61,734 bases of DNA, from assembly GCA_016928855.1 (NCBI GenBank), contig JAFGKA010000213.1, positions 1-61,734 of the forward strand. The letters run 5' to 3'. Shown here piece by piece: positions 9,537 through 38,085 of the stretch. Positions within the stretch are counted from its first letter, which is position 1. Each line of letters begins with the position of its first letter. The stretch comes from Phycisphaerae bacterium (GTDB taxonomy: Bacteria; Planctomycetota; Phycisphaerae; UBA1845; PWPN01). Both the position numbers and the translations under genes were made by a program. The notes beneath the pieces were generated by a model that did not search any database, was not told the DNA's origin, and saw only the letters and a program-made list of their open reading frames with translations.

Positions 9537-9539
9537 AAC

Positions 9540-22297: not shown

Positions 22298-23248
22298 TCA
22301 TCCGAACGGCATCTTGACATGCTTGCGGAGGAACGCGACATTCTGCGCCGTCGCTTCGACAACCTGTGCGCGGTTCTTGTGATCAGATTCGAAAACGTAC
22401 CACCCGTCGTAGCCGATCTCGTTCAGCACCTCCAAGGCAGCCCGCCACTCGACCAGCCCCGATTCACTAAGAAGCCGGTCTCCGTTCTTGACGTGCACTT
22501 GGCAGATTCGATCCTTGCCCAACAGCCTGATACCGGGTATGGCCTCGGCTGGATGACCGTACTGCGCCATGTTGTAAGGATCGTAATAGACCTTGACGCT
22601 AGGGTGAGCAACCTCATCGAGGAGCTTCTTGTTGTCAGCGGGGCTCAGCGAGTTCTCGAGGCCAAGCGTTACTCCCGCATCGGCGGCCTTTGAAGCCACA
22701 CGCTGGAAAACTTGGACCACCGGCCCGTAGGACGATTCGTCGGCCATGTCGGGGGCGTCGTTCCGGAAGAAGGCGACCAAGACCACGCCGGATCCCAGGC
22801 TCTCGGCAACCCGGATCGCCTTCGTCAGATTGCTCTCGGCTGTTGGGGATTGCATGATCGACACGCCACTGTCCCACACACCGGCCAGCGAAGGAATCAT
22901 CATGCCCCATCGATTGGCTTCTCGCTTGTAGCGACGCACCGCATCCGGGTCCCACAGATTGGGCTTCCCGCTTGCGACCTGGAGTTCTATGCCCAGCAAG
23001 CCAGGGATCTGTCGGGCCAGCTTGAAGACGTTGAAATCGCCAACCATCCTCATGCTGGCGGCGCGGTGCCCGATTTTCAAAGGAATCCGAGTATTCTGTT
23101 CCGCTGGTGCGGCCTCCGCCGGGCGAGCCGACGGCGTCATGAAACTGGCTCCAACGGCCGCCGCTCCCCAGGATGCGAGCTTGGCAAACTGCCGTCGAGA
23201 CATGCCAACTCGGGAAGACGGTCGCGACCTCTCGGTCTTGGTTCTCAT
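22298..23248 (-). CDS. Exported TIM-barrel sugar isomerase/epimerase-like protein
   Basis: A 316-residue protein with a twin-arginine signal (MSRRQFAKLASWGAAAVGA, about residues 16-34) and an AP-endonuclease-2-like TIM barrel. Metal-ligand-type residues lie in VTLGLENSLS, VKVYYDPYN, ICQVHVKNGD and WYVFESDH. The start at 23248 has GAGGTAA upstream. It is the last gene of the leftward catabolic operon, 62 bases after a Gfo/Idh gene. TIM-barrel/Gfo pairs act together in 3-keto-sugar chemistry, so a shared substrate is plausible. It ends 25 bases from the mobile-element relic. Confidence 0.85.
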   Translation of the reverse strand: MRTKTERSRPSSRVGMSRRQFAKLASWGAAAVGASFMTPSARPAEAAPAEQNTRIPLKIGHRAASMRMVGDFNVFKLARQIPGLLGIELQVASGKPNLWDPDAVRRYKREANRWGMMIPSLAGVWDSGVSIMQSPTAESNLTKAIRVAESLGSGVVLVAFFRNDAPDMADESSYGPVVQVFQRVASKAADAGVTLGLENSLSPADNKKLLDEVAHPSVKVYYDPYNMAQYGHPAEAIPGIRLLGKDRICQVHVKNGDRLLSESGLVEWRAALEVLNEIGYDGWYVFESDHKNRAQVVEATAQNVAFLRKHVKMPFG

Positions 23249-23310
23249 CGCCGTTACCTCACGTTGGCTGGTTCGAGACTGCTCCAGCCTGTCGATTCCG
23301 AGGTCCTGTT

Positions 23311-24525
23311 TCACGTAACCTCCGAAGCCTTGATATGGCGTCGCTCCGCCAGGGACATCTGGGCCGCCTGCGCAATCAGGACAGCCGGTAGGTGATCTCG
23401 GGCCGATGGGAAGGCCGGTTTCTTACCCTGCACGGCATCGAGAAAGTGCAGGTACTGTAGGGTTGACGGGTCGGTTTTCGATGTGGGCAATTTGATCGCT
23501 TCCATCTTATCCGGTCCTGTGCCCTTGCCGTAGGGACGCCAATACGCGCACTTGCGGACGATGGCCTCACCCGCCCCCCGCGAGCCAAGCTGCAGCGTGG
23601 CGTTCTCACCGAAGAGGATATCCGGCCCCGGTCCGCCGCAGGAGTAGAGGTTGCCCCCATACGTCATCAAGGCGCCGTTGGCATACCGGACCACGATGCC
23701 GGCGTGGTCCCATGAGTCCCGGTTCTGCAGCTTCCTGTTGTGAACGCCGCCAAGGCACGTGATCTCGACGGGCTCATCACCGATGAACCAGTTGAACACA
23801 TCAATCGTGTGGATTCCCATCTCGTAGACGACGGACCCGCCTTCATCCTGTCTCATCCGCCAGTTCTTCTGAGAGTCCTCCTCCGGATCAGGATAGAGCT
23901 TGACCCAATCTGCACGGAATGTCTGAGCTACGCCGTACAGGACGGGCCCGATCAGGCCCTCGCGCAGCTTCTGGGCCAGCGCGGCATAGCCCGGAGAATG
24001 GCGGCTCTGTGTGCCCACCTGTACAATCCGCTGTGTCCGGCCGGACGCGTCAATGATCGCCTTCGTATCGGCTACCTTCAGGGTCAGCGGCTTCTCACAA
24101 AGAACATGCTTTCCGGCTTCGAGTGAAGCGATCGTGCCCTCTCGATGGAGCGTGTTCGGCAGAACCACGACCACGGCGTGAACGTCCGCCTCCTTGAGCA
24201 TCTTCGTGGAGTCCGTATACAACCGAGGTTCACCGGACTTGACCATCTTCTTTTTCTCTTCCAGCTTTTCAGGCAGGATGTCACACAGTGCCGCCACCTC
24301 CATGTGCTCGGCCAGGTGATTGACCGCCTGGATGTGAGCCTGGCTGCGGTTTCCGCACCCGAGGATGCCAATCCGAAGCTTCTCTCCCGGCTTCAGCGAG
24401 GCTGCACTGATGAACGTCTGGGGGGCATCCGCGCCCTTGCAGATCCTGCTTGCGAGCCCAAGGCCCGCCGAGGCGAGTACACTCCTGACCAGAAACGAAC
24501 GACGTGTCTGTTCTTCATACGACAT
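23311..24525 (-). CDS. Gfo/Idh/MocA-family oxidoreductase, exported type
   Basis: A 404-residue NAD(P)-dependent oxidoreductase-fold protein with an N-terminal Tat-like signal (TRRSFLVRSVLASAGLGLAS, about residues 7-26). The Rossmann motif is GILGCGNRSQAH and the conserved lysine lies in CEKPL. The second domain contains GGSVVYEMGIHTIDVFNWF, which carries the usual catalytic His/Asp region. The substrate is unknown. It is sixth in an operon with two other Gfo/Idh genes, suggesting sequential or alternative oxidation of related sugars or glycosides. The signal implies action outside the cytoplasm, with bound cofactor. Confidence 0.88.
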   Translation of the reverse strand: MSYEEQTRRSFLVRSVLASAGLGLASRICKGADAPQTFISAASLKPGEKLRIGILGCGNRSQAHIQAVNHLAEHMEVAALCDILPEKLEEKKKMVKSGEPRLYTDSTKMLKEADVHAVVVVLPNTLHREGTIASLEAGKHVLCEKPLTLKVADTKAIIDASGRTQRIVQVGTQSRHSPGYAALAQKLREGLIGPVLYGVAQTFRADWVKLYPDPEEDSQKNWRMRQDEGGSVVYEMGIHTIDVFNWFIGDEPVEITCLGGVHNRKLQNRDSWDHAGIVVRYANGALMTYGGNLYSCGGPGPDILFGENATLQLGSRGAGEAIVRKCAYWRPYGKGTGPDKMEAIKLPTSKTDPSTLQYLHFLDAVQGKKPAFPSARDHLPAVLIAQAAQMSLAERRHIKASEVT

Positions 24526-24589
24526 TGTGCTACCTCCTGGTTTGCTATTGCGGTCACAAGCGATAATGAGGCGAGACCGGCCTTGAACG

Positions 24590-25492
24590 CTACTGCACTT
24601 TCTGTCCCAGTCCTTTTGCGATCTCTCTCACGACACTCGCGCTCCTGCGCACATCGGCGGCCTTGTCCTTCACCTCGTTGTCATACTCAAACGAGATCTG
24701 GCCGGCGAACTTCTGACGGTGAAGTTCAGTCAGCATGCCCTTCACATTGACCACGCCCGTGCCCAAGATCACATCATGCCCCTGAGGGCTGTTCTCGCTC
24801 ACGTCCTTGAGGTGCAGGTATAGCAGACGGCCCTCATACGTTCTGAGGCACTCCACCGGATCCAGACCGGACCGGACCCAGTGGCCGGTGTCGGCGCAGC
24901 AACCGATGCGTTTGCTGTGCTTCTCGATCATCCGCATGATGGCGGCGGGATCCCAGTAGGTGTAGGCCGGCTGGTTCGGCCGCTTGGGGTGATTGTGCAT
25001 CGCCACGCTGATGCCGAATTCATTGGCCAGCTTGTCCAATGTGGCCAGCTTCTGAGGTTCTGGCTCACCCACAAAGACCTGGATGCCCATGACCTTGCCG
25101 AACTCGAACAGCTTCCGCATCGTGGCCTCGTTCTTGCCGAAGTTGCCGGCATAATAGCTGACGAGGGTGAGGCCCGCGTCCGCAAGCTTCTTCCTGGTCT
25201 TGGCCAGCACCTCGGGCGGTGCGGTCGGGCCCAATTCAGCATCACCTGTCTCGGCACTGATCGTGTAGGGGCGCCCCTCGACCGCCTTCAGGCCCAGCGC
25301 CCCAGCCTTGTCGATGGCCTCGAAGAACGTGACCTTCGACAGCGTCCTGTACGCTGGAACGGCCAAGGTCCACACGACCGGTTGACTCTCCGCCGACGTC
25401 GGCTCCGCCTTCTTCTCGGCGGCGTCAGCAACCGACATCAACGTCATGAACGCCACTGAGACGGCAACGATGATTGTCTTAACCGTGAACAT
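24590..25492 (-). CDS. Secreted TIM-barrel sugar isomerase/epimerase-like protein
   Basis: A 300-residue protein with a Sec signal peptide (about 1-24, VKTIIVAVSVAFMTLMSVADAAE) and an AP-endonuclease-2 TIM barrel. Likely metal-site residues occur in ISVAMHNH, GCCADTGHW, LYLHLKD and QISFEYDNE. It lies between TauE and Gfo/Idh genes in the leftward catabolic operon. In this family some members isomerise or epimerise sugars and others cleave 3-keto-glycosides. I cannot distinguish these by sequence alone. Confidence 0.87.
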   Translation of the reverse strand: MFTVKTIIVAVSVAFMTLMSVADAAEKKAEPTSAESQPVVWTLAVPAYRTLSKVTFFEAIDKAGALGLKAVEGRPYTISAETGDAELGPTAPPEVLAKTRKKLADAGLTLVSYYAGNFGKNEATMRKLFEFGKVMGIQVFVGEPEPQKLATLDKLANEFGISVAMHNHPKRPNQPAYTYWDPAAIMRMIEKHSKRIGCCADTGHWVRSGLDPVECLRTYEGRLLYLHLKDVSENSPQGHDVILGTGVVNVKGMLTELHRQKFAGQISFEYDNEVKDKAADVRRSASVVREIAKGLGQKVQ

Positions 25493-25526
25493 GCACTACC
25501 TCCAGCCATCCAAACGCTCATAGGAG

Positions 25527-26258
25527 TCAGGCCTTGATCAGATACTTGAGCCCGATGACGAACAGGAACACGAATACGATCATCCGCAGCCGTTCGCGCT
25601 TGACGCGGTGAAGGACATGTGTACCGCCCAGAATGGCCAGCACCAGGGGAACGATTGCGAGCAGGCCGGTCCACAAGAAATCGGTTCGGAGCAGTCCGTG
25701 ATTCTGAACCAGGATCAGTCGGATGATCGAGGGAATCAGGAAGACCAACTGTAGCAGAGCCACGATATGCTCTTTGGTCCAGTCTTGCGAGTATGCATAG
25801 ATCACCGCCGGCGGGCCGCCGGCGTGGAACGCGCCGCTCAACATACCGCTGATGCTCCCCATGACGACGCCGTACTTCTTGGGAATATTGAACGGGCGGA
25901 TGCGGGACATCACAACTTCCCGGAGCGAGTACAGACAGATGAATATGCCCAGCCCGCGCATCAGCCACTCGGACGGCACATGGACCATCACGTAGAAGCC
26001 AACCGGTAGCGCCACGCACGAGCTGATCAGCAGGTCGAGGCCTTGGCGCCATCGATAGTGCTTGATGTTGCCCATCAGGGTCATGCTGCAGGTCACCAGA
26101 ACCATGATCGAGACGATCGTATACGCGCCTTCGAAGCCGAGAAGCAGCGGCAACAGCGACATCGAGACGAGGCCAAAGCCGAATCCAGTCACGCTCTGAA
26201 CAAATCCGGACAGGGCAATCGCCCCTATCGTAAGAACCATCATCAAGTCGCTGTTCAT
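25527..26258 (-). CDS. TauE/SafE-family anion permease
   Basis: A 243-residue membrane protein with about eight hydrophobic segments and the family phrases GFVQSVTGFGFGLVSMSLLPLL and SGMLSGAFHAGGPPAVIYAYS. TauE/SafE proteins move sulfite, sulfoacetate and other sulfonates across the inner membrane. The start at 26258 overlaps the upstream Gfo/Idh stop (ATGA), so the two are coupled. A second TauE is encoded at 35226 in the divergent operon. Having one in each operon suggests that both uptake and efflux of a sulfonate may be needed. Confidence 0.9.
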   Translation of the reverse strand: MNSDLMMVLTIGAIALSGFVQSVTGFGFGLVSMSLLPLLLGFEGAYTIVSIMVLVTCSMTLMGNIKHYRWRQGLDLLISSCVALPVGFYVMVHVPSEWLMRGLGIFICLYSLREVVMSRIRPFNIPKKYGVVMGSISGMLSGAFHAGGPPAVIYAYSQDWTKEHIVALLQLVFLIPSIIRLILVQNHGLLRTDFLWTGLLAIVPLVLAILGGTHVLHRVKRERLRMIVFVFLFVIGLKYLIKA

Positions 26259-27301
26259 CGCTTTCGTTTCCCCTGATGCAAGGCCACCACCGCGCCCGTA
26301 TCGACAGACTCCTGGGCCTTCAGGCACATGGCCACGGCCCAGCCACCGTCTTCGCCCGTCACAGAGGGCGGGCGACCATCACCGATCGCCTCGGCCACAT
26401 CCGCGATCTGGTCAGACAGCTCAAATACTTCGCCGGTCGGCTTGGTCAACGGCACTTCCCGGGTAACCTGCCCGTCGAAGTGTTTGAGGACGAACGTAGG
26501 ATTCCAGGTCCGATCCATCACGCCGCCCCAGACGCCCCAGATCGCTCCCTGTGATCCGGTGACCTTGAGCGTCAGATGGTGCTCATAGGCACTGAGCGTT
26601 TGCGAGATCACGGCAAAACGGCCATCGGGGAAGTTCATGATGGCCGCGAAGTTGTCCTGCAACTCCGGACATTCAGTTCGCCGCGCGCTGGCACGGGCAT
26701 AAACCGAAACCGGATCTCCCCATTTCGCCAGGTACCACCGGGCCAGATCGAAAAAGTGGATCGGCTCTTCGAGGATCCAGTTCCCCACCCGTGCGATGTC
26801 ATACCGCCAGCCTTGCGACCCCTGGCGATAGGGATTCCGCCACAGTTCGATGTTCACATAGCGGGGATCGCCGATCGAACCGGCATCGATCAGATCTTTG
26901 ATCTGCCGCCACATGCATGAGAAGCGGAACTGGTGCGTGACGCAGAGGCGAAGACCTCTCTCGCGAGCGTTTTCGAGCAGATCATTGCACTGAGCGGTGC
27001 TCAGGGCCATCGGCTTCTCCATCAGCAGATGCCTGCCGGACTCCAGAACGGACCGGCCCGCCTCGTGATGGAGGTCGTTGGGAAGGACAATATCGACCAC
27101 CTCGACTTCCGGCAGGCTGAGCAGTCGTCGGTAATCTGCAACGATCTCGGCGTCTGGATGGGTTTCGTGGGCCTGCCGGCGAGCCTGTTCACCGCAGTCG
27201 GCGATGGCCACGAGTCGCGCCCGCGGACACTGGCTGATCGCCCGGGCATGATGGCTGCCCCAGGCGCCGTACCCGACAAGGCCAAAACCAACTCTGCGCA
27301 T
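26255..27301 (-). CDS. Gfo/Idh/MocA-family oxidoreductase, cytoplasmic type
   Basis: A 348-residue protein without a signal peptide. The Rossmann motif is GLVGYGAWGSHH at the N-terminus, with MEKPMA carrying the conserved Lys at about 97 and EEPIHFFDLARWY in the catalytic region. It is one of three Gfo/Idh proteins in this operon and the only one predicted cytoplasmic. GH188 NAD-dependent sulfoquinovosidases belong to this fold. Assignment to that role here is a hypothesis from context. It sits 11 bases downstream of the next Gfo/Idh gene. Confidence 0.9.
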   Translation of the reverse strand: MRRVGFGLVGYGAWGSHHARAISQCPRARLVAIADCGEQARRQAHETHPDAEIVADYRRLLSLPEVEVVDIVLPNDLHHEAGRSVLESGRHLLMEKPMALSTAQCNDLLENARERGLRLCVTHQFRFSCMWRQIKDLIDAGSIGDPRYVNIELWRNPYRQGSQGWRYDIARVGNWILEEPIHFFDLARWYLAKWGDPVSVYARASARRTECPELQDNFAAIMNFPDGRFAVISQTLSAYEHHLTLKVTGSQGAIWGVWGGVMDRTWNPTFVLKHFDGQVTREVPLTKPTGEVFELSDQIADVAEAIGDGRPPSVTGEDGGWAVAMCLKAQESVDTGAVVALHQGKRKR

Positions 27302-27312
27302 ATACCTGCACC

Positions 27313-28776
27313 TCAGACGCTGGGCAACTCGAAACCCTGGCGATACTCGCGAGCAAGCAACCGGTTCGCTTCCTCGTCGGGCTTGCCGTCCTGGGTCAGG
27401 ACTGTTTCACGGTCGCAATCCCACCAGATCTTGTGACCGACCCTCAGGGCGACATTGCCGAGGTGACAGGCGCTCGCGGTCCGATGCCCGATCTCGATCC
27501 CGCAATGGAGATCCTCGATCTTCCGGGAGCGGATGCAGTCCAGGAAGTTCTTGACATGCGGCGGGAGGGTATCATTGCCCGGCTTCTTGACGGCAAGTGT
27601 GCGAGGCGGGATCTTTGTCACCTTGCGGGTGCGATGTCTGGGGTTGTCGAGATCGACCTGCGTGTCCTCGGGCGTAACCTCCCAGCCGCCACGATTGATG
27701 AACAGGGAACCGTCGGAGCCGTGGAATTCGGTCCCATAGCTCTCCTGCACATTGCCCCGGTGGTACACCTTGCCCATCGTGTACACTTGGGTAAACAGGT
27801 GGCCGTCCGGCGCCTTGTATTCGTAGACCACGTCCATCATGTCCGGGGTCTCGCGGTTGTCTTTGAGCGCGCGTTTGTAGCCTTCGCCCTCGCGACAGAG
27901 AGGGCCATGCGCCACTGTCGGCCCGAACGCCGTGACGGACAATGGGGCATCCACCTGCATACCCCAGTGGATGATGTCCTGGATGTGTACGTTCCAGTCG
28001 CAGATCATGCCGCCGCCGTAGTCGTAAAAGAAACGCCAGCTCCAATGGAAGCGGTTTGGGTTGAATGCCCGCTTGGGCGCCGCCCCCAGCCACATGTCGT
28101 AGTCCACTTCTGCGGGCGGGTCCGTATCCGGCGGACTGCCGATGCCGTCCGGCATCTCATTAGCATAGTTGAAAGTCGCGGTGCGCGAGATCACGCCCAA
28201 CGGGCTGCCCGCGCGGAGGTACTCCATCGCCTCGCGAAAGTGCGGATCGCTCCGCTGCTGCATCCCGACCTGCACGATTCGCTTGTACTTCCTCGCCGCT
28301 TCGACCATGGCCCGGCCTTCGCGGATATTGTGCGAGGCGGGCTTCTCGACGTACACGTCCTTGTTCGCCGCGCAGGCGAGGATCATCACCGTGGCGTGCC
28401 AGTGGTCGGGCGTGCCGACGACCACAACGTCGATGTCCTTCCGGTCGATAACCCTGCGAAAATCCTGATAGACGTCGGGCTTGCTCTCGAACTTCCCGTT
28501 ATACGCCTTGGCGGCGGCGTCTGATTGCCGCTTGTCGACATCGCAGAGAGCAACCAGTTCGAGGCCGGCGCCGCCGACCTCCAGCATCGCGTGCATGTCG
28601 GCGCGGCCCTGGCCGCCACAGCCGACCAACGCCGCGCGCAGCCTTTCATTGGCGCCCAGCGGGCCCGGAGCCGCCAGTGTGCCGCGGGGCATGAAGTACG
28701 GCGCTGAGACCGCAAGGGATGCGGCCGCGCCGCGTTTGAGCAGGGTTCTTCGGGAAACGCCATCTCGTTGTACCAT
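27313..28776 (-). CDS. Gfo/Idh/MocA-family oxidoreductase, Tat-exported
   Basis: A 487-residue protein with a twin-arginine signal (SRRTLLKRGAAASLAVSA, about residues 8-25). The Rossmann motif is GCGGQGRADMH and the conserved Lys lies in VEKPASHN. WDCDRETVLTQDG near the C-terminus and the long second domain are typical of the large planctomycete subgroup. The start at 28776 has GAGGTC upstream. It follows the fucose-isomerase-like gene by 91 bases. Exported Gfo enzymes of this type act on polysaccharide-derived sugars or glycosides; the substrate is unknown. Confidence 0.9.
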   Translation of the reverse strand: MVQRDGVSRRTLLKRGAAASLAVSAPYFMPRGTLAAPGPLGANERLRAALVGCGGQGRADMHAMLEVGGAGLELVALCDVDKRQSDAAAKAYNGKFESKPDVYQDFRRVIDRKDIDVVVVGTPDHWHATVMILACAANKDVYVEKPASHNIREGRAMVEAARKYKRIVQVGMQQRSDPHFREAMEYLRAGSPLGVISRTATFNYANEMPDGIGSPPDTDPPAEVDYDMWLGAAPKRAFNPNRFHWSWRFFYDYGGGMICDWNVHIQDIIHWGMQVDAPLSVTAFGPTVAHGPLCREGEGYKRALKDNRETPDMMDVVYEYKAPDGHLFTQVYTMGKVYHRGNVQESYGTEFHGSDGSLFINRGGWEVTPEDTQVDLDNPRHRTRKVTKIPPRTLAVKKPGNDTLPPHVKNFLDCIRSRKIEDLHCGIEIGHRTASACHLGNVALRVGHKIWWDCDRETVLTQDGKPDEEANRLLAREYRQGFELPSV

Positions 28777-28867
28777 GGTCTGACCTCGCAATTGTCTCGT
28801 CTTCCTGACTGGAGGTGATACCGGCCCATGGATGTTGTCTTGCGTGCGCCCGGGCCGATCGGCCCAG

Positions 28868-30361
28868 TTACCGCAAGACCTCACACAGCGTCACGTCCGG
28901 CGTCGGCCTGACGAACGCGAAGGGCAACGAAGGCGTGCAGAGACCCGGCACCGCCTGCCCGCCGTGGTACATCCCCATGCCGTAGTAATTCCCGAACACC
29001 TCGTGCAACACGTTTCCCACGTGCGCGCGCGTCACCGCCACGTGATGCGGGAAGTGCCGCAGCAAGATATCGCGATACATGTGCGGCAACCCGTGGAGAC
29101 GACACCAGCCGTACGCCCCAAAGGTGTTCGCTGAGTTGTCCTCGAATCGGCCCTGACCCAGAAATACCTTCCAGCCCTCGCCCGGCATGCCCTGGGTTAT
29201 GCGGCAGACCGTGGCCGGACCTTCGCGGACGACCAGTTCCAGCACACCAGTGGATTTGTCCGTCCCGATGTGCCTGCTCATGATCCCCTGGGCCGCCATC
29301 GTTGGCCGGCTCTTTCCGAATGACGGGGGGTACACGCCGCAGTGCCAGAGATTGACCAGCTCCGGGTCGTCATTGTGCAAGTTGTTCCAATCCAGCAGGG
29401 CCGCCGGCGAATCCGCCGCGAGTTGCAGGGCGTACATCGACAGGGCGCCGAGCACATCGGACTCGCAGGCGTGCGGAATCCCGCGATCGCCCATTCGCGC
29501 CATGACGCCGCAGGCCACAATTCCGTAGTTCAGTTGCAGGGAGTTCCAGCACTGGACAGCCACGGCATCGAGTTCCGCCTGCTTGATCAGGTCATCCAGA
29601 GCTCGCTCGAACTTGGCAATCCTCAGCAGGATCTCGTCAGCTACTGCAGCGGTGTCCGCGCAAGACCGGATGCTGTCAAGCTTGTTGCGAACCTCGGCGT
29701 CATCGTCGCTTAATCGCGAAATGGCCCCCAGGACCTCTGACAGATCCTTGGGGACAACGGTCACTCCAATCTGCTGCAGCATCTTCTCGTCGCATCGGCA
29801 GGTCCAGAAAGCCTCCGGCCGCGGCCCGATCTGTCCGATCCGGCAGCCGCGGAGGCCCTTGAGTACCCGGCATACGCGAGCAAAGTGGTCCACCTCCGTG
29901 TGGAACTGTTCATCCGTCGGCAGGCAGATCGGCGTCTGGGCGACCGTGTAACGCACCCCGATCTGACGCATGGCCTCGGCGATGGAAAGAAGGCCGCAGA
30001 AGGCGTCCCGCCGCTTCATCCCGGCATGCAGCGCCTCTTCTTCCTGGCAACCGTAGATCAGGACAGGCACGTTGGCTCCGCAGCTCTGAACCGCGGTCGC
30101 GATGCCTTGTTCGTCTCCAAAGTTGACCGCGCCCACCAGAATCCCGTCAACACCTTCGCGACGGAAGAGTCCCCCGCACCGGTGGCCTTCGTCCCGGTTC
30201 TTGACGCAGCCGACGTCGGTCATTGTTTCGTCCGGGACCACCGCGTCGATTTCCAGGCTGGCGAGCACAGCCAGCGTCTCGCGGCGGGCCTTGGCGGCCA
30301 TTTCGGTGGAGAAGTAACGTCGGTTGGCAGGTATGAACCCGAGCTTCACCTTCGACGTCAT
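28868..30361 (-). CDS. L-fucose/L-arabinose-isomerase-fold sugar isomerase
   Basis: A 497-residue isomerase and the first gene of the leftward operon. The family metal site is present: E300 (PHACESDVLGA), D324 (ALLDWNN) and H447 (TRAHVGN). The 24-residue Glu-Asp spacing equals that in E. coli FucI as I recall it. It should interconvert an aldose and ketose using Mn. The linked transketolase and TauE genes make a sulfosugar (sulfoquinovose to sulfofructose) one plausible substrate. Fucose itself is less likely because no fuculokinase or aldolase is nearby. Start 30361 gives a natural MTSKVKLGFIP N-terminus. Confidence 0.85.
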   Translation of the reverse strand: MTSKVKLGFIPANRRYFSTEMAAKARRETLAVLASLEIDAVVPDETMTDVGCVKNRDEGHRCGGLFRREGVDGILVGAVNFGDEQGIATAVQSCGANVPVLIYGCQEEEALHAGMKRRDAFCGLLSIAEAMRQIGVRYTVAQTPICLPTDEQFHTEVDHFARVCRVLKGLRGCRIGQIGPRPEAFWTCRCDEKMLQQIGVTVVPKDLSEVLGAISRLSDDDAEVRNKLDSIRSCADTAAVADEILLRIAKFERALDDLIKQAELDAVAVQCWNSLQLNYGIVACGVMARMGDRGIPHACESDVLGALSMYALQLAADSPAALLDWNNLHNDDPELVNLWHCGVYPPSFGKSRPTMAAQGIMSRHIGTDKSTGVLELVVREGPATVCRITQGMPGEGWKVFLGQGRFEDNSANTFGAYGWCRLHGLPHMYRDILLRHFPHHVAVTRAHVGNVLHEVFGNYYGMGMYHGGQAVPGLCTPSLPFAFVRPTPDVTLCEVLR

Positions 30362-30444
30362 GTCCGCAGACTCCTCGCTTGTGCGGCGGGCATCGCCGCG
30401 CCCCATACGGCCTCCACGTTCCCTGTAACCGATGCCTCGCCACG

Positions 30445-30521
30445 TGTCAAGACAAATATTCAAAATCGTATAAATACGGTTGACAGCCGCCGGCATCTGT
30501 TGTTATATTCCGTGTAATAAC
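30445..30521. promoter_or_regulatory. Divergent control region of the two sugar operons
   Basis: A rightward promoter is clear: TTGACA (30480-30485) and TTATAT (30503-30508) with a 17-base spacer, placing the transcript start about 10 bases before the regulator ATG at 30526. Two operator-like palindromes flank it: CGTATAAATACG (30467-30478), perfect 5+2+5, and GTTAT...ATAAC (30502-30521) over the -10 and start. The AT-rich patch stands out in GC-rich surroundings. A minus-strand TTGACA (30445-30450) could begin the leftward promoter, but I see no good -10. The ROK protein is the likely ligand of these sites. Confidence 0.6.
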
Positions 30522-30522
30522 C

Positions 30523-31653
30523 GTGATGAGGATCCCGGTGGCAGGTGCACATATTTCTGATAGTGAAAATCTAAAACGCCATCGCCTCCTGCGGCAGATT
30601 CGCCGACTGGGCCAGGCCAGGCGTCTGGAGTGTTCTCGCTCCCTTCGAATCAGCAACGCGCGGGTATGCGATCTGATCCAACAGATGCTGGACCAGAAAC
30701 TGTTGATTGAGGACGGAGACGGAAGCGAGCGACGAGGGCGGAAGGGTTCGCCCGTGCGGCTGAACCCGAATTACGGTCATCTGGTCGGCTTCGACGTGGA
30801 GGCTAAGCGTCTCCGACTGGTTGCCACCAACTTCTCCGGCGACACGGTCTGGGAAACGCACCAGAAGCTGATACCTCCCGCGGATCGCCGCAAACTGATC
30901 GACGTGATCCTCAGCTTCATTGACAAAGGCCTGAGGGAAATCCGCGGCCGATTCCGCCGTGTGCTGGGGATCGGTTTGGCGGCCAACGGGATCATCGACG
31001 TCCGGCGCGGTGTGATTCTCCACTATGACCTGGTTCCGGCGGCAAGGGATATACCGCTGCGCGACCTCGTCGCGGGCCAGACGAATCTGCCGTGCTGCAT
31101 GGACAACAACATACGGGTCCTGACGCTCGCAGAATGGATGAGGGGAGCGGCGCAGCATCTGCACACCTTCGTCTGCCTAGCCGTCCGAAGCGGCGTGGGG
31201 GCCGGAATCGTAATGGACGGCAAACTGTATGTCGGCAGCCATGGCTTCGCCGCGGAGCCTGGTTATACGCCGGTAACCTTCGGGCAGGACGCGAGGCAGT
31301 GGAAGCATCTGCATAACGTCGTGTCCGAGATCGCGCTCGGGGTGGACGTCGAGGCCGCCGACTTCAAGCTCAGCGTGGGCAAGGCCCGTCGCGCGGGTGA
31401 GTTGCTGGGGGCTTATCTGGCCACCATTGCGGCGTTGCTCGACCCGCAAGCCATCGTGCTGGCCGGCGGCCTTGTTCGGCCGGATGGGCCGCTTTGGGAT
31501 CCGATGGTCCGGGTGTTTCGGCAGACGGTGGTCCCAGAGCTGGCGGATCGGGTGCAGATTCTGCCCGCTCGACTCGGTCCCTACGCAGCCGCTATCGGGG
31601 CGGCGCATCGTTGTTTTGAGATGCTCTACCCGGTGGAGGTGACCGGCGCCTGA
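30523..31653 (+). CDS. ROK-family transcriptional regulator
   Basis: A 376-residue protein with an N-terminal winged helix (about 18-70, LLRQIRRLGQARRLECSRSL...VCDLIQQMLDQ) and a ROK sugar-kinase-like domain (GFDVEAKRLRLVATNF, GIGLAANGIIDVRRG). The usual ROK zinc motif (CxCGxxGCxE) is absent, and the kinase glycine loops are degenerate, so it should act as a sensor-repressor. GTG 30523 or ATG 30526 could start it. The leader is only about 10 bases, with no Shine-Dalgarno. As first gene of the rightward operon it probably controls both divergent operons. Confidence 0.87.
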   Translation: MMRIPVAGAHISDSENLKRHRLLRQIRRLGQARRLECSRSLRISNARVCDLIQQMLDQKLLIEDGDGSERRGRKGSPVRLNPNYGHLVGFDVEAKRLRLVATNFSGDTVWETHQKLIPPADRRKLIDVILSFIDKGLREIRGRFRRVLGIGLAANGIIDVRRGVILHYDLVPAARDIPLRDLVAGQTNLPCCMDNNIRVLTLAEWMRGAAQHLHTFVCLAVRSGVGAGIVMDGKLYVGSHGFAAEPGYTPVTFGQDARQWKHLHNVVSEIALGVDVEAADFKLSVGKARRAGELLGAYLATIAALLDPQAIVLAGGLVRPDGPLWDPMVRVFRQTVVPELADRVQILPARLGPYAAAIGAAHRCFEMLYPVEVTGA

Positions 31654-31777
31654 TGTGCCTCACGGTGCGACGCCGGCGCTGGAACAAATACATGCGATTG
31701 AGTAACGCCCTGATCTGTACGTTCCACGCCGACGGGAAAGCCAACTGAGTCCGCGGGCTTCTTGAAAGGTCAATGTC
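31654..31777. other. Gap between regulator and catabolic genes
   Basis: The 124 bases contain no gene. A weak inverted pairing is possible, but no clear terminator or promoter was seen. The genes on both sides run in the same direction. Confidence 0.3.
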
Positions 31778-32902
31778 GTGTTCAGTTTTCAATATCACTC
31801 GCCTGTGCAGATCTGCTTCGGGTACGGCGCGCGCGACACGCTGGGCGAAGTCGCCGGCCGGTTGGGCGGTAAGGGTTTTCTGGTGGTCGACCCTGGCGTG
31901 GCGTCCTCACCGCTGTTCAAGGCGTACATCGAGTCGCAGACCGCTCTGCTGGCGGGCTGCTTCGATAAGGTCGAGCCAAACCCCAGCGTCGGTTGCGTCT
32001 CACGCATCGCGGCGCAGATTCGCTCGACAGGCGCAGGATTTGTCGTGGCCCTCGGAGGGGGCAGCACGATCGACGCCGCCAAGGCCGCAGCCCTGTCGGC
32101 CGGGGGTTCGCCCATCGAGGAATACCATTCCGGCCGCCGTCCGGCGGGTGAGAACGCCTTGCCGGTGATCGCCATGCCAACCACGGCCGGCACCGGCAGC
32201 GAGGTCACCGCGGTCTCCGTGCTCACGGACCCCGCCCGGGGCGTGAAGGCTCCCATCGGCGGGCCGGCGCTCCTGCCGCGCGTGGCCATCGTCGACCCCG
32301 AGTGGACCGTGTCCGTTCCGCCGACAGTCACGGCCGCCACCGGCATGGACGCGCTGAGTCATGCCCTGGAGGCCTATTGGGGCGTCCACGCCCAACCCAT
32401 TTGCGACGCGCTCGCGGAGAAGGCGGCTTGGCTGATCCTGGATTCGCTGGAGCAGGCGTACGCCAACGGCTCGGACCGCGACGCCCGCGAAAAGGTTGCA
32501 CTGGGCAGCCTGCTTGCCGGCCTTGCATTTGCCGCACCCAAGACCGCCGCGGTGCATGCCTGTTCGTTCCCACTTACGCAGCGATTCAGACTCCCCCACG
32601 GTGTGGCCTGCGCCCTGACCTTGGACCGTTTCCTCGAGTACAATACCCTGGCGCTGCCCGAGAAACTGGCCCACCTCGCCCGGCAATTGGGTCTTGAGGG
32701 TGTGCCGGCGCTGGCGGCGCGAATCCGGACGATGAAGCGGAACATGTCACTGCCCACCACCCTCGCTGACGTGGGCATCCATGAGCAGAATCTGCCGGCA
32801 CTTGTCGCTGAGAGTTTTCATCCCAACATGCGGAACAATCCCCGCGAAGTGACCCCTGCGGATTTGATGGCGATCTATTCGTCCCTCCAGGAGACCCACT
32901 GA
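31778..32902 (+). CDS. Iron-containing alcohol dehydrogenase (candidate sulfoacetaldehyde reductase)
   Basis: A 374-residue group III alcohol dehydrogenase. The NAD site is GGGSTID at 93-99. Metal ligands are D191 and H195 (GMDALSHALEAY) plus H260 and H274. The His that usually sits four residues after the third ligand (H267 in FucO) is Phe264 here, an odd substitution next to the nicotinamide. Fe-ADHs such as SarD reduce sulfoacetaldehyde to isethionate. The transketolase and TauE neighbours make this role plausible. GTG start with AAAGG nine bases upstream. The next gene begins one base after its stop. Confidence 0.88.
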   Translation: MFSFQYHSPVQICFGYGARDTLGEVAGRLGGKGFLVVDPGVASSPLFKAYIESQTALLAGCFDKVEPNPSVGCVSRIAAQIRSTGAGFVVALGGGSTIDAAKAAALSAGGSPIEEYHSGRRPAGENALPVIAMPTTAGTGSEVTAVSVLTDPARGVKAPIGGPALLPRVAIVDPEWTVSVPPTVTAATGMDALSHALEAYWGVHAQPICDALAEKAAWLILDSLEQAYANGSDRDAREKVALGSLLAGLAFAAPKTAAVHACSFPLTQRFRLPHGVACALTLDRFLEYNTLALPEKLAHLARQLGLEGVPALAARIRTMKRNMSLPTTLADVGIHEQNLPALVAESFHPNMRNNPREVTPADLMAIYSSLQETH

Positions 32903-32903
32903 C

Positions 32904-33749
32904 GTGTGTGAGTTCAAGAAGGAAGAGTTCGACAGGCTGGCCGCCGAGTGGCGATACATCATCACCGACATGATCTGCAGGGCGGGGTCCGGCCATTTGG
33001 GCGGGGCGCTCAGCCTCGTCGAGATCGTGATGACCCTCTACAGGCGGGTGATGAGGATTGCCCCCGAGAATCCCGAGTGGCCCCAGCGCGACCGGCTGAT
33101 AGTCTCCAAGGGCCATGCCGGCCCGGTGGTGTACATCGCCCTGGCGCACGCGGGTTTCTTTCCGGCCAACTGGCTGAAGACGCTCAACGCCGACGGAACG
33201 CGCCTACCCAGCCACTGCGACCAGAGCCGCACACCCGGTATCGACATGACCACCGGATCGCTTGGCCAGGGCCTGTCGTGCGCGTGTGGCCTGGCCCTGG
33301 CCGGCAGGATGGATGGCAAAAAGCACCGCCTCTTCTGCATTGTCGGCGACGGCGAATGCCAGGAGGGCCAGATCTGGGAGGCGGCCATGTTCGCCGGTCA
33401 CCACAAGCTCGACAACCTCGTGGCGATCACCGACTACAACCAGCTCCAGATCGACGGTTTCGTCAAGGATATCAACACGCTCGAACCGCTGGTCGCCCGC
33501 TGGCGGGCCTTCGGCTGGGAAGTGTTCGAGATCAACGGCCACGACTGGGATGACATCTACAACGGGCTTAACAAAGGCATCGCGGTCACCGGCAAGCCCG
33601 CGATGATCATCGCCCACACAATCAAGGGCAAGGGTTGCCGCGAAATCGAGAACAAGCCTGAAAGCCACAACATCAAGATTGCGGATGCCGCAGCCTATCA
33701 GAAATACATGAATGCCCTGGAAGTAACCGACGTTACACTCCCATATTGA
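32904..33749 (+). CDS. Transketolase, N-terminal (TPP-binding) subunit
   Basis: A 281-residue subunit carrying the thiamine-diphosphate site. The motif runs from GDGECQEGQ (148-156) to N179, and conserved active-site His residues lie in AGSGHLGG (H31), SKGHAGP (H71) and LPSHCD (H104). Together with the next gene it forms a split transketolase, as in many bacteria and in the SqwG/SqwH sulfo-transketolase. It starts at GTG 32904, with GGAG 12 bases upstream inside the previous gene. Placement between an Fe-ADH and an RpiB-like isomerase argues for a dedicated catabolic role. Confidence 0.92.
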   Translation: MCEFKKEEFDRLAAEWRYIITDMICRAGSGHLGGALSLVEIVMTLYRRVMRIAPENPEWPQRDRLIVSKGHAGPVVYIALAHAGFFPANWLKTLNADGTRLPSHCDQSRTPGIDMTTGSLGQGLSCACGLALAGRMDGKKHRLFCIVGDGECQEGQIWEAAMFAGHHKLDNLVAITDYNQLQIDGFVKDINTLEPLVARWRAFGWEVFEINGHDWDDIYNGLNKGIAVTGKPAMIIAHTIKGKGCREIENKPESHNIKIADAAAYQKYMNALEVTDVTLPY

Positions 33750-33805
33750 GGCTGCCGTCGACCGAACTGGCGAGGAGACCGCACACCGGTTAGCGAGATT
33801 CACAT

Positions 33806-34756
33806 ATGCCTGAGCTTCATGAAATGGAAATGCGTGCCGTTTACGCCCAGACGCTCAACGAGCTGATGGACGTGAATCCCAACGTGCTGTGCCTGGAGGC
33901 GGATCTGAGCAAAGCCTCGGGCACAAATCCGGCCGTAGCCAGGATGCACGCCGAGAACTTCATCAACGTGGGTGTAGCCGAGGCCAACATGGTGTGCATC
34001 GCCGCCGGCCTGGCCCGGGAGGGTAAGATCCCGTTCTGCGCGACCTTCACGTGCTTCGCGGCGCGGCGCGTGTACGACCAAGTGACCATCAGCGTCGCCT
34101 ACGCCAATAACAATGTAAAGATCGTCGGCACCGCGCCGGGCATCACCGCTGGCCCCAACGGCGGCACGCACATGTGCTTCCAGGATCTGGCCATCATGCG
34201 GGCCATGCCCAACATGCATGTGTACAGCCCATGCGATGCCTACGAACTACGCTCCGTCATCCGCCACATGGCTGAGTCGAAACAGCCCACCTACATGCAG
34301 CTCGTTCGCGAGAAGGTCGGGCCAGTGTTTGGCGAGGATTATCGGTTCGCTCCTGGCAAGGCCGTCGTGGTCCGAGAGGGGCGCGATGTCACTGTAGTCT
34401 CGACCGGGTATATGACCAGCTTCGCGATCGAGGCGGCGGAAGAGTTGGGCGCCCATGGCGTCAGGACAGAGGTGCTGCACTGTCCTTCGGTCAAACCATT
34501 TGACGTGGAGACCCTCGTGGAATCCGCGCGCAAGACCCACGCAGTGGTCACCATCGAAACTCAGAACGTCATCGGCGGGCTCGGTTCCGCCGTCTGTGAA
34601 ACACTCTCCGAGCACTGCCCGACGCTTACCAGACGCCTGGGCATCCCCGATCGCTTCGGAGAGGTCGCAACCGCGGATTACCTGTTCAACAAACACGGCT
34701 TCGGCGTGAGCCACATCGTGAAGGCCTGCCGGCAGATGATGGAAAGGAAATTCTGA
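33806..34756 (+). CDS. Transketolase, C-terminal subunit
   Basis: A 316-residue subunit with the pyrimidine-binding domain (about 1-165) and the transketolase C-terminal domain (about 185-310). The catalytic Glu that activates thiamine is E59 (VGVAEANM). The loop GITAGPNGGTHMCFQDLA occupies the position of the conserved substrate-binding histidine segment. The last base of its stop region overlaps the next start, so the isomerase gene is coupled to it. It completes the split enzyme with the gene at 32904. Confidence 0.92.
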   Translation: MPELHEMEMRAVYAQTLNELMDVNPNVLCLEADLSKASGTNPAVARMHAENFINVGVAEANMVCIAAGLAREGKIPFCATFTCFAARRVYDQVTISVAYANNNVKIVGTAPGITAGPNGGTHMCFQDLAIMRAMPNMHVYSPCDAYELRSVIRHMAESKQPTYMQLVREKVGPVFGEDYRFAPGKAVVVREGRDVTVVSTGYMTSFAIEAAEELGAHGVRTEVLHCPSVKPFDVETLVESARKTHAVVTIETQNVIGGLGSAVCETLSEHCPTLTRRLGIPDRFGEVATADYLFNKHGFGVSHIVKACRQMMERKF

Positions 34757-35229
34757 TGAAGATGGCCATCGCTTCAACCCGGGCGGGTCTCACCCTCAAG
34801 GATGAACTCATTGCCTTTCTGACCGGACTCGGCCACAAGGTGGACGACTTGGGCATGAAGGTCGGGGGAGAGTTTGTTCCCTATTACGAGTCGGCGGCCC
34901 GCGTGGCTGCGGCGGTGAGCCGTGGTGAGTACCCCCGTGCAATCGTCGTCTGCGGCACAGGAGCCGGTAGCGCGATCGTGGCCAACAAGTTCAAAAACGT
35001 CTACGCCGTCCATGCCAGCAGCGAGTATGAAGGGCGGCGGGCCACCATGATCAACAATGCCAACATTCTGGCCCTCGGTGAGTGGGTCACTCCGCCTCAG
35101 CATGCAAAGGAGATCGTGAAGGGCTGGCTGGACGCAACGTTCGGCGAGGGCTTCGAGCCAGACTGGCAGGGATTCCTTGCGAAAGCCTGCGAGGAAGTGA
35201 AGACGATCGAAGCCCGGAACATGGCATGA
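34756..35229 (+). CDS. RpiB/LacAB-family isomerase with altered active site
   Basis: A 157-residue isomerase. The catalytic-base Cys66 is kept (VVCGTGAGSAIVANKF). The usual N-terminal SDHAG reads STRAG at 8-12, and the ring-opening His of the REHNDAN segment is replaced (TMINNAN). Loss of the ring-opening residue would suit an open-chain substrate. 4-deoxy-4-sulfo-erythrose cannot form a furanose ring because O4 is gone, and the sulfo-TK enzyme SqwI is of this family. Ordinary ribose-5-phosphate isomerase activity is thus less likely. It overlaps both neighbouring genes (ATGA with TauE). Confidence 0.85.
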   Translation: MKMAIASTRAGLTLKDELIAFLTGLGHKVDDLGMKVGGEFVPYYESAARVAAAVSRGEYPRAIVVCGTGAGSAIVANKFKNVYAVHASSEYEGRRATMINNANILALGEWVTPPQHAKEIVKGWLDATFGEGFEPDWQGFLAKACEEVKTIEARNMA

Positions 35230-35954
35230 ACGAAGTTCTGCTATTCACTGTGATTGCTTGCATCGGCATCCTGGTCCAGTCCTTTGCCGGTTTCGCCGGA
35301 TCCCTGACCGCGATCCCGCTCTTCTCGCTGTTTTTGCCGCCCAGAGAGGCGATACCGGCTTTCAACATGGTCATGCTGCTGGTAGACGCATGGCTGGTAT
35401 TCGAAGCGCGCCGGTATATCCAGTGGGGTCGCGTGGGCAGGCTGATGGTCGGCGCAGTCGCGGGGATTCCTATCGGGGCTTACGGGCTCAAGTACCTGCC
35501 GACCCACGTGCTTGGACTGATCATCAGCATCGTCACGCTCATCTTCGCGATCCTTTTCCTGCTCAAGATCAGGATCAACCTCAAGGAGAACGCGGGCACA
35601 CAGATGTGCGTCGGCCTGCTGAGCGGGTTCCTTGGCGGAAGCATCTCGGAATCGGGCCCCCCGGTAGTCATCTATGGTCTGGCGCGCGACTGGGACAAGA
35701 ATGCATTCCGGACGACCCTCCTGACCTATTTTACCTGCCTGTGTGTGCTGGCCCTCTTATGCTACTGGCAACTTGGGCTGCTGTCGGGAAAGAGCCTGTC
35801 TACGTTCTCGGCCGCAATCATTCCATGCTTTCTCGCCGCCATCTTCGGCTTGGTGTTCAAGAACCGGGTGGGCGAGGCCACGTTTCGCAGGGCCGTCCTG
35901 GCGGTCATTATCATGGTCAGCCTGATCGGACTCATCCGATCGCTCTGGATGTAA
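35226..35954 (+). CDS. TauE/SafE-family anion exporter
   Basis: A 242-residue membrane protein with about eight hydrophobic segments and the family phrases VQSFAGFAGSLTAIPLFSLF and LLSGFLGGSISESGPPVVIY. It is the last gene of the rightward operon, coupled by an ATGA overlap to the isomerase. TauE-type permeases in sulfoglycolysis clusters export the C2 or C3 sulfonate end product, here possibly isethionate. It shares fold but only limited sequence with the TauE at 25527. The longer upstream frame merely shadows the isomerase. Confidence 0.9.
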   Translation: MNEVLLFTVIACIGILVQSFAGFAGSLTAIPLFSLFLPPREAIPAFNMVMLLVDAWLVFEARRYIQWGRVGRLMVGAVAGIPIGAYGLKYLPTHVLGLIISIVTLIFAILFLLKIRINLKENAGTQMCVGLLSGFLGGSISESGPPVVIYGLARDWDKNAFRTTLLTYFTCLCVLALLCYWQLGLLSGKSLSTFSAAIIPCFLAAIFGLVFKNRVGEATFRRAVLAVIIMVSLIGLIRSLWM

Positions 35955-36522: not shown

Positions 36523-36654
36523 GTTATCTACGATACCCCCGATTTCGGCGTTTTCTCTACGATGCGCCGATCGAACCGTAAACCAAGCTCTAATAAGCCT
36601 TTACCCCCGTTTTTCGCCCCTTTTCTTTTGGCTCTGTTTTCCCTGTGCTTCATG
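36523..36654 (-). mobile_element. Relic right end of a Mu-like element of the same family
   Basis: The stretch matches the resident element's right end in the same order: TTATCTACGAT and TTCTCTACGATG sites, CCCCCGATTT between them, the C/T-rich block CCCCGTTTTTC and the terminus GTTTTCCCTGTGCTTCATG. By eye roughly 70 percent of positions agree over about 130 bases, with small gaps and one 18-base deletion. Similarity stops after CATG, which independently places the family terminus where the target duplication of the resident copy puts it. Internal genes are gone. Confidence 0.75.
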
Positions 36655-36762
36655 GGTTTGCGCCGGCCATGCTCTAGCTCGCCTGGGCTGCTGCGACTGG
36701 ACATATTCCGGCGACGCCACGATGATTGGCGGGCTATTGATGCTAACGGAGTGAGGCTTGCC

Positions 36763-37932: not shown

Positions 37933-38047
37933 TGCGGCAACCGGCGGCCTGTTGGCCATGGCGAGATATTGCGCCAGTGATGGACATTATGGACGAGATG
38001 GACGGCATGGACGTCCGGTCCGGACTCGCGTCTGTTCTCTCTCGGCT

Positions 38048-38079
38048 ATTCGCGTTGATTCGCGTCCATTCGCGGTTCG
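38048..38079. repeat. Dispersed short repeat (GCGAATNNACGCGAAT type)
   Basis: ATTCGCGTTGATTCGCGTCC followed by ATTCGCGGTTCG is the inverse of a block at 58543-58576 (CGAACCGCGAATGAACGCGA then ATGGACACGAATGG). Such 9-10-base-period intergenic repeats are common in planctomycete-type genomes. Both copies lie just after or before gene ends. Confidence 0.5.
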
Positions 38080-38085
38080 TCTTTC

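What the first reader, a model, noticed from the sequence alone, without database searches (positions are those of the whole stretch)
22298..35954. Candidate sulfo-transketolase (sulfoquinovose) catabolic locus in a planctomycete
One divergent locus encodes every step of the sulfo-TK route as I know it. These are an aldose-ketose isomerase (28868), a split transketolase (32904, 33806), an RpiB/LacAB-type isomerase (34756), an Fe-ADH able to reduce sulfoacetaldehyde (31778) and TauE sulfonate exporters (35226, 25527), under a ROK regulator (30523). Seen: the genes, their order and tight coupling. Established: SqwG/H are split transketolases, SqwI is RpiB-like, and SarD-type sulfoacetaldehyde reductases are Fe-ADHs. 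Inference: that the substrate is sulfoquinovose. A planctomycete version with this gene set would be new to me.
Basis: partly seen in the sequence, partly recalled or inferred. Interest (0 to 1): 0.85.

Follow-up and report, generated by a model that had tools for sequence, protein, structure and literature searches.

The report
Planctomycete sulfo-transketolase-type sulfosugar locus
A bacterium of the phylum Planctomycetota carries a gene cluster that looks like the known route for breaking down a sulfur-containing plant sugar into isethionate, but with an unfamiliar enzyme at the first step, which hints at a new variant or a different sulfosugar.

Summary
The genes are there: a divergent locus with isomerase, ROK regulator, Fe-ADH, split transketolase, RpiB-like isomerase and two TauE genes. 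The three lower-pathway enzymes pass the tests run. The Fe-ADH groups with sulfoacetaldehyde reductases, including solved BkTauF (6JKO), and keeps its three substrate residues (32 of 32 SqwF, 0 of 19 other Fe-ADHs). The RpiB-like protein lies on the SqwI side of a 100/98 split and has lost RpiB's phosphate motif. The transketolase pair falls in a 100/100 clade with all 16 sampled SqwGH pairs, but four other transketolases share it. Gene order F-G-H-I matches the Clostridium prototype. The upper half does not pass: the isomerase lies across a strong split from SftI/SqvD (21-26% identity), nearer apiose-type isomerases; no GH31 sulfoquinovosidase was hit, and the one protein tested for GH188 residues fails. 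Best reading: a sulfo-TK-type pathway ending in isethionate with a non-orthologous entry enzyme; sulfoquinovose as substrate is inferred. Another planctomycete holds a more canonical sulfo-TK/TAL locus (L098). A 2026 review names Clostridia, Spirochaetes, Thermotogae, Firmicutes and Tenericutes for sulfo-TK, not planctomycetes. New variant of a known kind.

The parts
31778..32902 (+). SqwF/TauF-type iron-containing alcohol dehydrogenase, predicted sulfoacetaldehyde reductase
   Evidence: Best PDB match 6jko 282.7 bits, next 192.5; F252/T257/F265 kept, clade with SqwF and BkTauF
32904..33749 (+). SqwG-type transketolase N-terminal subunit
   Evidence: Pfam Transketolase_N; 100/100 clade with SqwGH; SHCD motif
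33806..34756 (+). SqwH-type transketolase C-terminal subunit
   Evidence: Pfam; trees; NGGTHM motif
34756..35229 (+). SqwI-type RpiB-family isomerase, predicted 4-deoxy-4-sulfoerythrose isomerase
   Evidence: Tree, bit-score ranking, signature residues
35226..35954 (+). TauE-family protein, candidate exporter (SqwE-like by position only)
   Evidence: Pfam TauE; a TauE-family gene follows Fe-ADH in the spirochaete locus L117, but this protein itself has no tblastn match of 45 bits or more in the 79 reference loci
30523..31653 (+). ROK-family regulator
   Evidence: Pfam ROK, NCBIfam Mlc/NagC-like below cut-off; ROK matches in 24 of 79 reference loci
30480..30509 (+). sigma-70-like promoter match before the ROK gene, 11 of 12
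   Evidence: 2 found in the region, 1.8 expected in shuffles; not evidence of function
28868..30361 (-). Fucose-isomerase-superfamily protein of a non-SftI subfamily; candidate entry isomerase
   Evidence: NF048012 124.6 bits vs cut-off 700; tree; conserved E301, D325, H341 kept
27313..28776 (-). Gfo/Idh/MocA oxidoreductase with a Tat-like signal (by eye), BT_2158 glycoside 3-dehydrogenase-like
   Evidence: NF058561 166.6 bits, below cut-off 750
26255..27301 (-). Gfo/Idh/MocA oxidoreductase without apparent signal peptide
25527..26258 (-). Second TauE-family protein
   Evidence: Pfam TauE, start
24590..25492 (-). Xylose-isomerase-like TIM barrel with apparent signal peptide (by eye)
   Evidence: Pfam AP_endonuc_2
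23311..24525 (-). Gfo/Idh/MocA oxidoreductase with Tat-like signal (by eye)
22298..23248 (-). TIM-barrel epimerase/isomerase-like protein with Tat-like signal (by eye)
   Evidence: Weak match to PRK13209, 29.3 bits; start

Best explanation
The locus encodes a sulfo-TK-type pathway. A C6-sulfonated aldose, most likely sulfoquinovose, is isomerised to a sulfoketose. The split transketolase moves two C2 units in turn to glyceraldehyde-3-phosphate, with the SqwI-type isomerase converting the C4 sulfoaldose to its ketose in between. Sulfoacetaldehyde remains, is reduced by the SqwF/TauF-type dehydrogenase to isethionate, and is exported by a TauE protein. The ROK protein is the likely repressor. 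Supported here by orthology, active-site residues and gene order: TK, SqwI, SqwF. Inferred: that the unorthodox isomerase makes the sulfoketose, that the sugar is sulfoquinovose, that isethionate leaves through TauE. The odds given are for the lower pathway on a sulfonated sugar and overlap with the third rival.
For: Fe-ADH: strongest PDB match is BkTauF, a characterised sulfoacetaldehyde reductase (PMC6616044, passages); clade 95/97 with 11 of 12 SqwF rows and BkTauF; all three substrate residues kept, as in 32 of 32 SqwF and 0 of 19 other Fe-ADHs. RpiB-like: 100/98 split, window with 18 SqwI rows and 4 planctomycete rows, against 16 other RpiB-family rows; P42, I99, E134 as in 43/43, 42/43, 43/43 SqwI and 0/16 others each. 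TK: 100/100 clade with 16 of 16 SqwGH pairs, excluding apiose-type and housekeeping TKs; shares 29 of 51 Sqw-diagnostic positions, against 2, 5 and 5 in three outside TKs. Order F-G-H-I matches the gene numbers of Clostridium sp. MSTE9 (PMC11659671, passages). A separate full-length TK exists elsewhere in the genome.
Against: The isomerase is not SftI/SqvD. No GH31 SQase hit in the genome (in its control E. coli matched only below the cut-off). No other RpiB-family gene and no RpiA in the 91.6%-complete assembly, so the RpiB-like gene could have a housekeeping role. The TK clade also holds four TKs that are not the TK unit of an SQ-isomerase locus, and the SqwI side holds three planctomycete proteins from other gene settings. 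The window's TauE1 has no match in the 79 reference loci, TauE2 in only 2. References come from loci chosen for their SQ isomerase, so sampling is biased. The window RPIB and TK rows are on long branches. Among 114 genomes of the order only this one has a Fe-ADH at SqwF level plus the TK unit; G428 has a 42% Fe-ADH without it.
Confidence: 0.7

Rival explanations
1. An apiose-type (Aps) pathway: isomerase, then a split transketolase on a branched ketose, with the RpiB-like and Fe-ADH genes as accessories.
For: Among plasmid records the isomerase's closest matches include proteins (29-35%) that sit beside split TK and sugar-kinase genes (four records opened), and L041 of the window's own class has isomerase-TK-TK-FGGY kinase. 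That these are apiose loci is recalled, not from a call.
Against: The window TKs fall outside the clade that holds the Aps TKs; no kinase among the 13 genes of the two units; an Aps route as recalled needs neither SqwI nor a sulfoacetaldehyde reductase.
Confidence: 0.08
2. A two-step transketolase route for an unsulfonated 6-deoxy sugar, releasing acetaldehyde that the Fe-ADH reduces to ethanol; TauE exports something else.
For: Same chemistry; the isomerase superfamily is that of fucose isomerase; an alpha-L-rhamnosidase lies 10 kb away; TKs of the same clade occur outside SQ-isomerase units.
Against: The Fe-ADH keeps BkTauF's substrate residues, and BkTauF had no activity on ethanol (PMC6616044, passages); two TauE genes.
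Confidence: 0.1
3. A sulfo-TK lower pathway fed by a sulfosugar other than sulfoquinovose (for example sulfofucose or a shorter sulfosugar). This overlaps with the best explanation and differs only in the substrate.
For: The entry isomerase belongs to another subfamily and lacks most basic residues that are fixed in SftI; no GH31 hit and no GH188 match among the tested proteins.
Against: In the passages read, sulfoquinovose is the only sugar reported for SqwGH/SqwI; no direct evidence for another sugar.
Confidence: 0.25
4. The RpiB-like protein is the organism's ordinary ribose-5-phosphate isomerase and the TK an extra pentose-pathway enzyme; the grouping is incidental.
For: Only RpiB-family gene and no RpiA in the assembly.
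Against: Loss of R133/H134 and H99 equivalents, SqwI signature; a separate full-length TK exists; assembly is 91.6% complete.
Confidence: 0.05

Closest known systems
Sulfo-TK pathway of Clostridium sp. MSTE9 and rumen Oscillospiraceae (SqvD, SqwGH, SqwI, SqwF, SqwE)
   Same: Split TK, SqwI, M-ADH sulfoacetaldehyde reductase, order F-G-H-I, ROK matches in 24 of 79 reference loci
   Different: SQ isomerase not orthologous, no SQase found, no importer in the two units; phylum Planctomycetota; extra Gfo/Idh and TIM-barrel genes; TauE proteins not close to those of the reference loci
Spirochaete locus L117 (bin_199)
   Same: SQ isomerase, ROK, TKN, TKC, SqwI, Fe-ADH, TauE on one contig
   Different: True SftI-type isomerase and an ABC binding protein; its Fe-ADH is divergent from the window's
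Planctomycete locus L098 (G330:C7)
   Same: TKN, TKC, SqwI, SqwF, same phylum
   Different: Adds FSA-type transaldolase, HIBADH-type reductase, SftI-side isomerase, and by eye TRAP transporter genes and a Gfo/Idh with the GH188 residues
Apiose-type loci (Klebsiella, Rahnella, Listeria, Monoglobus plasmid records)
   Same: Isomerase of the same side of the family tree next to a split TK
   Different: Sugar kinase present; TKs of another clade; no RPIB or Fe-ADH match. The name apiose is recalled
BkTauF, sulfoacetaldehyde reductase of Bifidobacterium kashiwanohense (PDB 6JKO)
   Same: 43% identity to the window Fe-ADH, same three substrate residues
   Different: Gene cluster put by its authors to taurine nitrogen assimilation

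Membership tests
Sulfo-TK pathway | Split sulfofructose transketolase of the SqwGH clade | tested here: met
   100/100 clade of 21 rows: window, 16 SqwGH, 4 others; window with the narrower Sqw group not rejected, p-AU 0.279 (group named after seeing the tree)
Sulfo-TK pathway | SqwI-type 4-deoxy-4-sulfoerythrose isomerase | tested here: met
   by sequence only
Sulfo-TK pathway | Sulfoacetaldehyde reductase SqwF (isethionate variant) | tested here: met
   by sequence only
Sulfo-TK pathway | SQ isomerase of the SftI/SqvD family | tested here: not met
   124.6 bits against cut-off 700; opposite side of a 100 SH-aLRT split; the genome's other matches to this model are weaker
Sulfo-TK pathway | Sulfonate exporter SqwE | tested here: inconclusive
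   TauE family by Pfam; reference loci match TauE2 in 2 of 79 and TauE1 in 0 of 79; specificity cannot be read from sequence
Sulfo-TK pathway | Conversion of SQ to isethionate | not testable with these tools
   Needs enzyme assays or growth experiments
GH188 sulfoquinovosidase (GFO2) | R166, L170, K172 sulfonate site and Y136 | tested here: not met
   Alignment to 8qc2: R166, E189 and H193 equivalents kept; L170, K172 and probably Y136 not (read by eye; residues from PMC10755693, passages). GFO1 and GFO3 were not tested for these residues, and no genome-wide GH188 search was made
Apiose (Aps) pathway | Sugar kinase and Aps-clade transketolase | tested here: not met
   definition recalled
Canonical RpiB | Phosphate-binding R133/H134 and H99 | tested here: not met
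   E. coli numbering and roles recalled

The most novel reading that the evidence does not exclude
A new entry route into sulfoglycolysis: the SqwGH-SqwI-SqwF core is fed by an isomerase recruited from the apiose/fucose-isomerase side of the family, and the sugar is freed not by a sulfoquinovosidase but by exported Gfo/Idh oxidoreductases and TIM-barrel proteins acting through a 3-keto (oxidation, elimination, hydration, reduction) sequence, possibly on a sulfosugar other than sulfoquinovose.
Probability: 0.25. Interest if true: 0.75.

Novelty: new variant of a known kind. Interest (0 to 1): 0.57.

Why it matters
Sulfoquinovose is among the most abundant organosulfur compounds (abstract of PMC12890257). 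In my searches of the held library no paper tied planctomycetes to it by genes: 11, 15 and 2 listings, most seen as listings only; PMC10285058 mentions planctomycetes and a PICRUSt-predicted sulfoglycolysis in fish gut without linking them (passages). If right, the pathway's range extends to a new phylum, isethionate supply to sulfite-respiring bacteria gains a new source, and the odd isomerase points to an untested sulfosugar isomerase family that screens built on SftI would miss.

Tried and rejected
Apiose pathway as the main reading: rejected on TK clade and missing kinase. Plain pentose pathway: rejected on RpiB residues and a separate TK. SftI orthology of the isomerase: rejected. GH188 for GFO2: not met. 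Operator search between the divergent units: no convincing palindrome. Context of the closest isomerase relative (54%, L034): ABC transporter parts, MttB, GH123, spore photoproduct lyase, and of the window's proteins only the isomerase matches there. Fe-ADH relative in the same order (G428, 42%): no TK, RPIB or isomerase match within 14 kb. GC content: 0.59-0.63 in the locus's 3-kb windows, within the window's 0.58-0.66, so no sign of recent import. PDB search with the isomerase: no hit at E 0.1. Structure prediction was not used: it would not settle the substrate.

Rows dropped before counts: isomerase tree, 5 of 61 rows; TK AU test, 3 of 42 rows, and L117 left out of the tested group. Trees used subsets of the reference rows: 18 of 43 SqwI; 12 reference loci plus L098 for TKC; 12 reference loci for Fe-ADH, 11 of which gave a row, plus L094 and L098; 15 plus L098 for the joined TK set. 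L086 gave no joined TK row, so that tree has 3 Aps rows and the TKC tree 4. Rows L277, L267 and L269 repeat reference TKs in the TKC tree; L238 and L287 are identical in the joined tree. The genome-contig scan kept the best 80 of 499 relatives. Of 79 loci outside the phylum, 49 have TKN and TKC, 43 also RPIB, 35 all four, 29 no TK match.
Full report
What is there. The finding's region holds two divergent units. Plus strand: ROK regulator, Fe-ADH, transketolase N (TKN), transketolase C (TKC), RpiB-family isomerase (RPIB), TauE. Minus strand: a fucose-isomerase-superfamily protein (SQI), two Gfo/Idh proteins (GFO3, GFO2), TauE, TIM barrel, Gfo/Idh (GFO1), TIM barrel. Most joins are short or overlapping; the widest within a unit are ROK-FeADH (124 bases) and SQI-GFO3 (91). 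The window is contig C322 of a 5.28-Mb, 606-contig assembly, 91.6% complete and 4.4% contaminated. Its phylum is that of G286, whose contig appears in the public collection as 'Planctomycetota bacterium isolate Nc350_bin29' (same 15,713-base contig and identical isomerase).

Reference loci. I had no access to the MSTE9 sequences. Instead I scanned the genome-contig collection with planctomycete SftI-side isomerases and kept the best 80 of 499 relatives, 79 of them outside Planctomycetota. Of these 79, 49 carry TKN and TKC, 43 also RPIB, 35 also Fe-ADH; 29 show no TK (some loci are cut by contig ends). Oscillospiraceae, frequent among them by title, are one of the groups reported to transcribe sulfo-TK genes in the rumen (PMC13219744, passages). 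They are sulfo-TK loci by gene content, not by assay.

Fe-ADH. NCBIfam gives no family above its cut-off. Among PDB chains one stands out: 6jko, 282.7 bits, next 192.5. 6JKO is BkTauF, a sulfoacetaldehyde reductase; F252, T257 and F265 surround its active site, T257A and F265A nearly abolish activity, F252A keeps about 28%, and it had no detected activity on ethanol, ethylene glycol or ethanolamine (PMC6616044, passages). The window protein is 43% identical over 368 columns and keeps F, T and F. All three (F or Y at 265) occur in 32 of 32 SqwF and 0 of 19 other Fe-ADHs. The tree puts window, 11 of 12 SqwF rows and BkTauF in one clade, 95/97; the spirochaete SqwF of L117 lies outside it (without BkTauF 99/98 with 12 of 13 SqwF rows). 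L094's SqwF-like gene lies next to a class II aldolase and the SftI-side isomerase, with no TK on the contig.

RpiB-like protein. Its tblastn scores are 96-124 bits to SqwI-side proteins and 57-82 to the other RpiB relatives collected. The tree splits 16 other RpiB-family rows from 23 rows (18 SqwI, the window, L098, L105, L216, L218) at 100/98. The window lies on a long branch (1.66), and its nearest kin are weakly resolved (94/55). At the position of RpiB H99, SqwI has I in 42 of 43 and V in 1, the window I, the other RpiBs H in 12 of 16. At R133, the others have R in 14 of 16, SqwI in 0 of 43, the window F. P42 and E134 are in 43 of 43 SqwI, the window, and 0 of 16 others. The window alone has T8-R9 where SqwI has D in 43 of 43 and K in 42 of 43. 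E. coli residue numbers and roles are recalled. In 392 planctomycete genomes its best matches beyond itself are in G286 and G330 (91-109 bits; next 86 or less). The genome has no other RpiB and no RpiA hit, which leaves a housekeeping role possible.

Transketolase. In the TKC tree the window sits in a 100/99 clade with all 13 SqwH rows. With both parts joined it sits in a 100/100 clade of 21 rows: 16 Sqw pairs, L288 (a fused TK of G330 in another setting), L088 (Niallia plasmid), and second TKs of Clostridia loci L180 and L184. Aps-type TKs and the genome's own full-length TK lie outside. Of 51 positions fixed in Sqw and rare elsewhere the window shares 29; the four other members share 34, 27, 27 and 24; three outside TKs share 2, 5 and 5. 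So the clade is wider than sulfo-TK, and the window is a deep member of it. Holding it with the narrow Sqw group is not rejected (p-AU 0.279).

Isomerase. Its only NCBIfam match is SftI, 124.6 bits against a cut-off of 700. SftI proteins are 21-26% identical to it; relatives on its own side 27-54%. The family tree has two sides, each at 100 SH-aLRT; the 13 SftI rows are on one, the window with the four Aps-type isomerases on the other (quick method). Glu, Asp and His positions fixed in both sides are kept (E301, D325, H341), but of ten basic positions fixed in SftI and not in the other side the window has a basic residue at two, K351 and R364. None of 392 planctomycete genomes has a match above the SftI cut-off. 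In L041, of the window's class, the isomerase pairs with an Aps-side TK and an FGGY kinase. So the first step is either done by a recruited isomerase or acts on another sugar.

How it probably works. Sulfosugar to sulfoketose (SQI, inferred); two TK rounds with SqwI between them (supported by orthology); sulfoacetaldehyde to isethionate (supported by residues); export by TauE (family only). The order F-G-H-I matches IMG gene numbers 2524472429-432 of MSTE9 (PMC11659671, passages). In the spirochaete locus L117 a TauE-family gene follows the Fe-ADH; the window's own TauE proteins match few reference loci (2 of 79 for TauE2, 0 of 79 for TauE1). Four exported-looking proteins of the minus unit (GFO3, GFO1, TIM1, TIM2; signals judged by eye) and GFO2 recall 3-keto-glycoside chemistry: GFO3 matches the glycoside 3-dehydrogenase model BT_2158 at 166.6 bits, below its cut-off of 750. 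An oxidation-elimination-hydration-reduction route is known for levoglucosan (PMC7676230, search listing only). That this releases a sulfosugar here is speculation.

Other planctomycetes. L098 (G330) holds TKN, TKC, SqwI, SqwF, an FSA-type transaldolase, a HIBADH-type reductase, an SftI-side isomerase, TRAP transporter genes by eye, and a Gfo/Idh whose cut sequence shows by eye the EKCCH and HR..FL.K residues of GH188. It looks like the bifurcated TK/TAL type known from Faecalicatena. L053 (G244) has an isomerase followed by TKN and TKC on a short contig. In the window's order, a Fe-ADH match at E 1e-55 occurs in 2 of 114 genomes, this one and G428, the latter without the other genes.

Literature. 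[quoted passage not shown] A 2026 survey of 21,845 aquatic genomes does not mention planctomycetes in its main text (PMC13372026, passages and one section; its supplementary tables not seen). Searches for sulfoquinovose or sulfoglycolysis with planctomycetes listed 11, 15 and 2 papers; in the three of them opened for this question no link is made (PMC12555021, PMC10285058, PMC8709368; passages), the others were judged from the listing or had been read in passages for other points. Liu 2021 was not looked up and Chu 2023 was not held.

Limits. Reference loci were picked by their SQ isomerase; the outside samples come from 12 genomes, planctomycete loci and a few plasmids. No activity is shown. 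The genome is fragmented.

Noticed in passing
window 6817-20073: Mu-like prophage genes: MuA-type transposase, transposition protein, major head protein, head protease, regulators, close to the locus.
   Followed up: partly
L098 (G330:C7) 1-11074: Planctomycete locus with both transketolase and transaldolase branches of sulfoquinovose breakdown, SftI-side isomerase, TRAP genes and a GH188-like Gfo/Idh (the last two by eye).
   Followed up: partly
L094 (G286:C49): Planctomycete contig with the most SftI-like isomerase of the phylum sample (332 bits), class II aldolase, SqwF-like Fe-ADH and HIBADH-type reductase; looks like a sulfo-EMP-like or mixed locus.
   Followed up: partly
L105 (G330:C39), L281 (G286:C209) and L282 (G330:C270): SqwI-type isomerases outside sulfo-TK settings, one between an Aps-side isomerase and (by eye) a mannose-6-phosphate-isomerase-like gene.
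   Followed up: partly
L041 (G157:C7) 8824-18814: Isomerase, split TK, FGGY kinase and, one gene on, an alpha-L-rhamnosidase: an apiose-type locus (name recalled) in the window's class.
   Followed up: partly
window 46148-49207 and 54267-55796: GH106 alpha-L-rhamnosidase and a sulfatase on the same contig.
   Followed up: no
whole genome G000: Neither RpiA nor a second RpiB-family gene was found in the assembly.
   Followed up: no
window 36562-39729: URO-D/MtaA-like protein and a sugar-porter MFS transporter downstream; the transporter is a possible but unlinked sugar importer.
   Followed up: no
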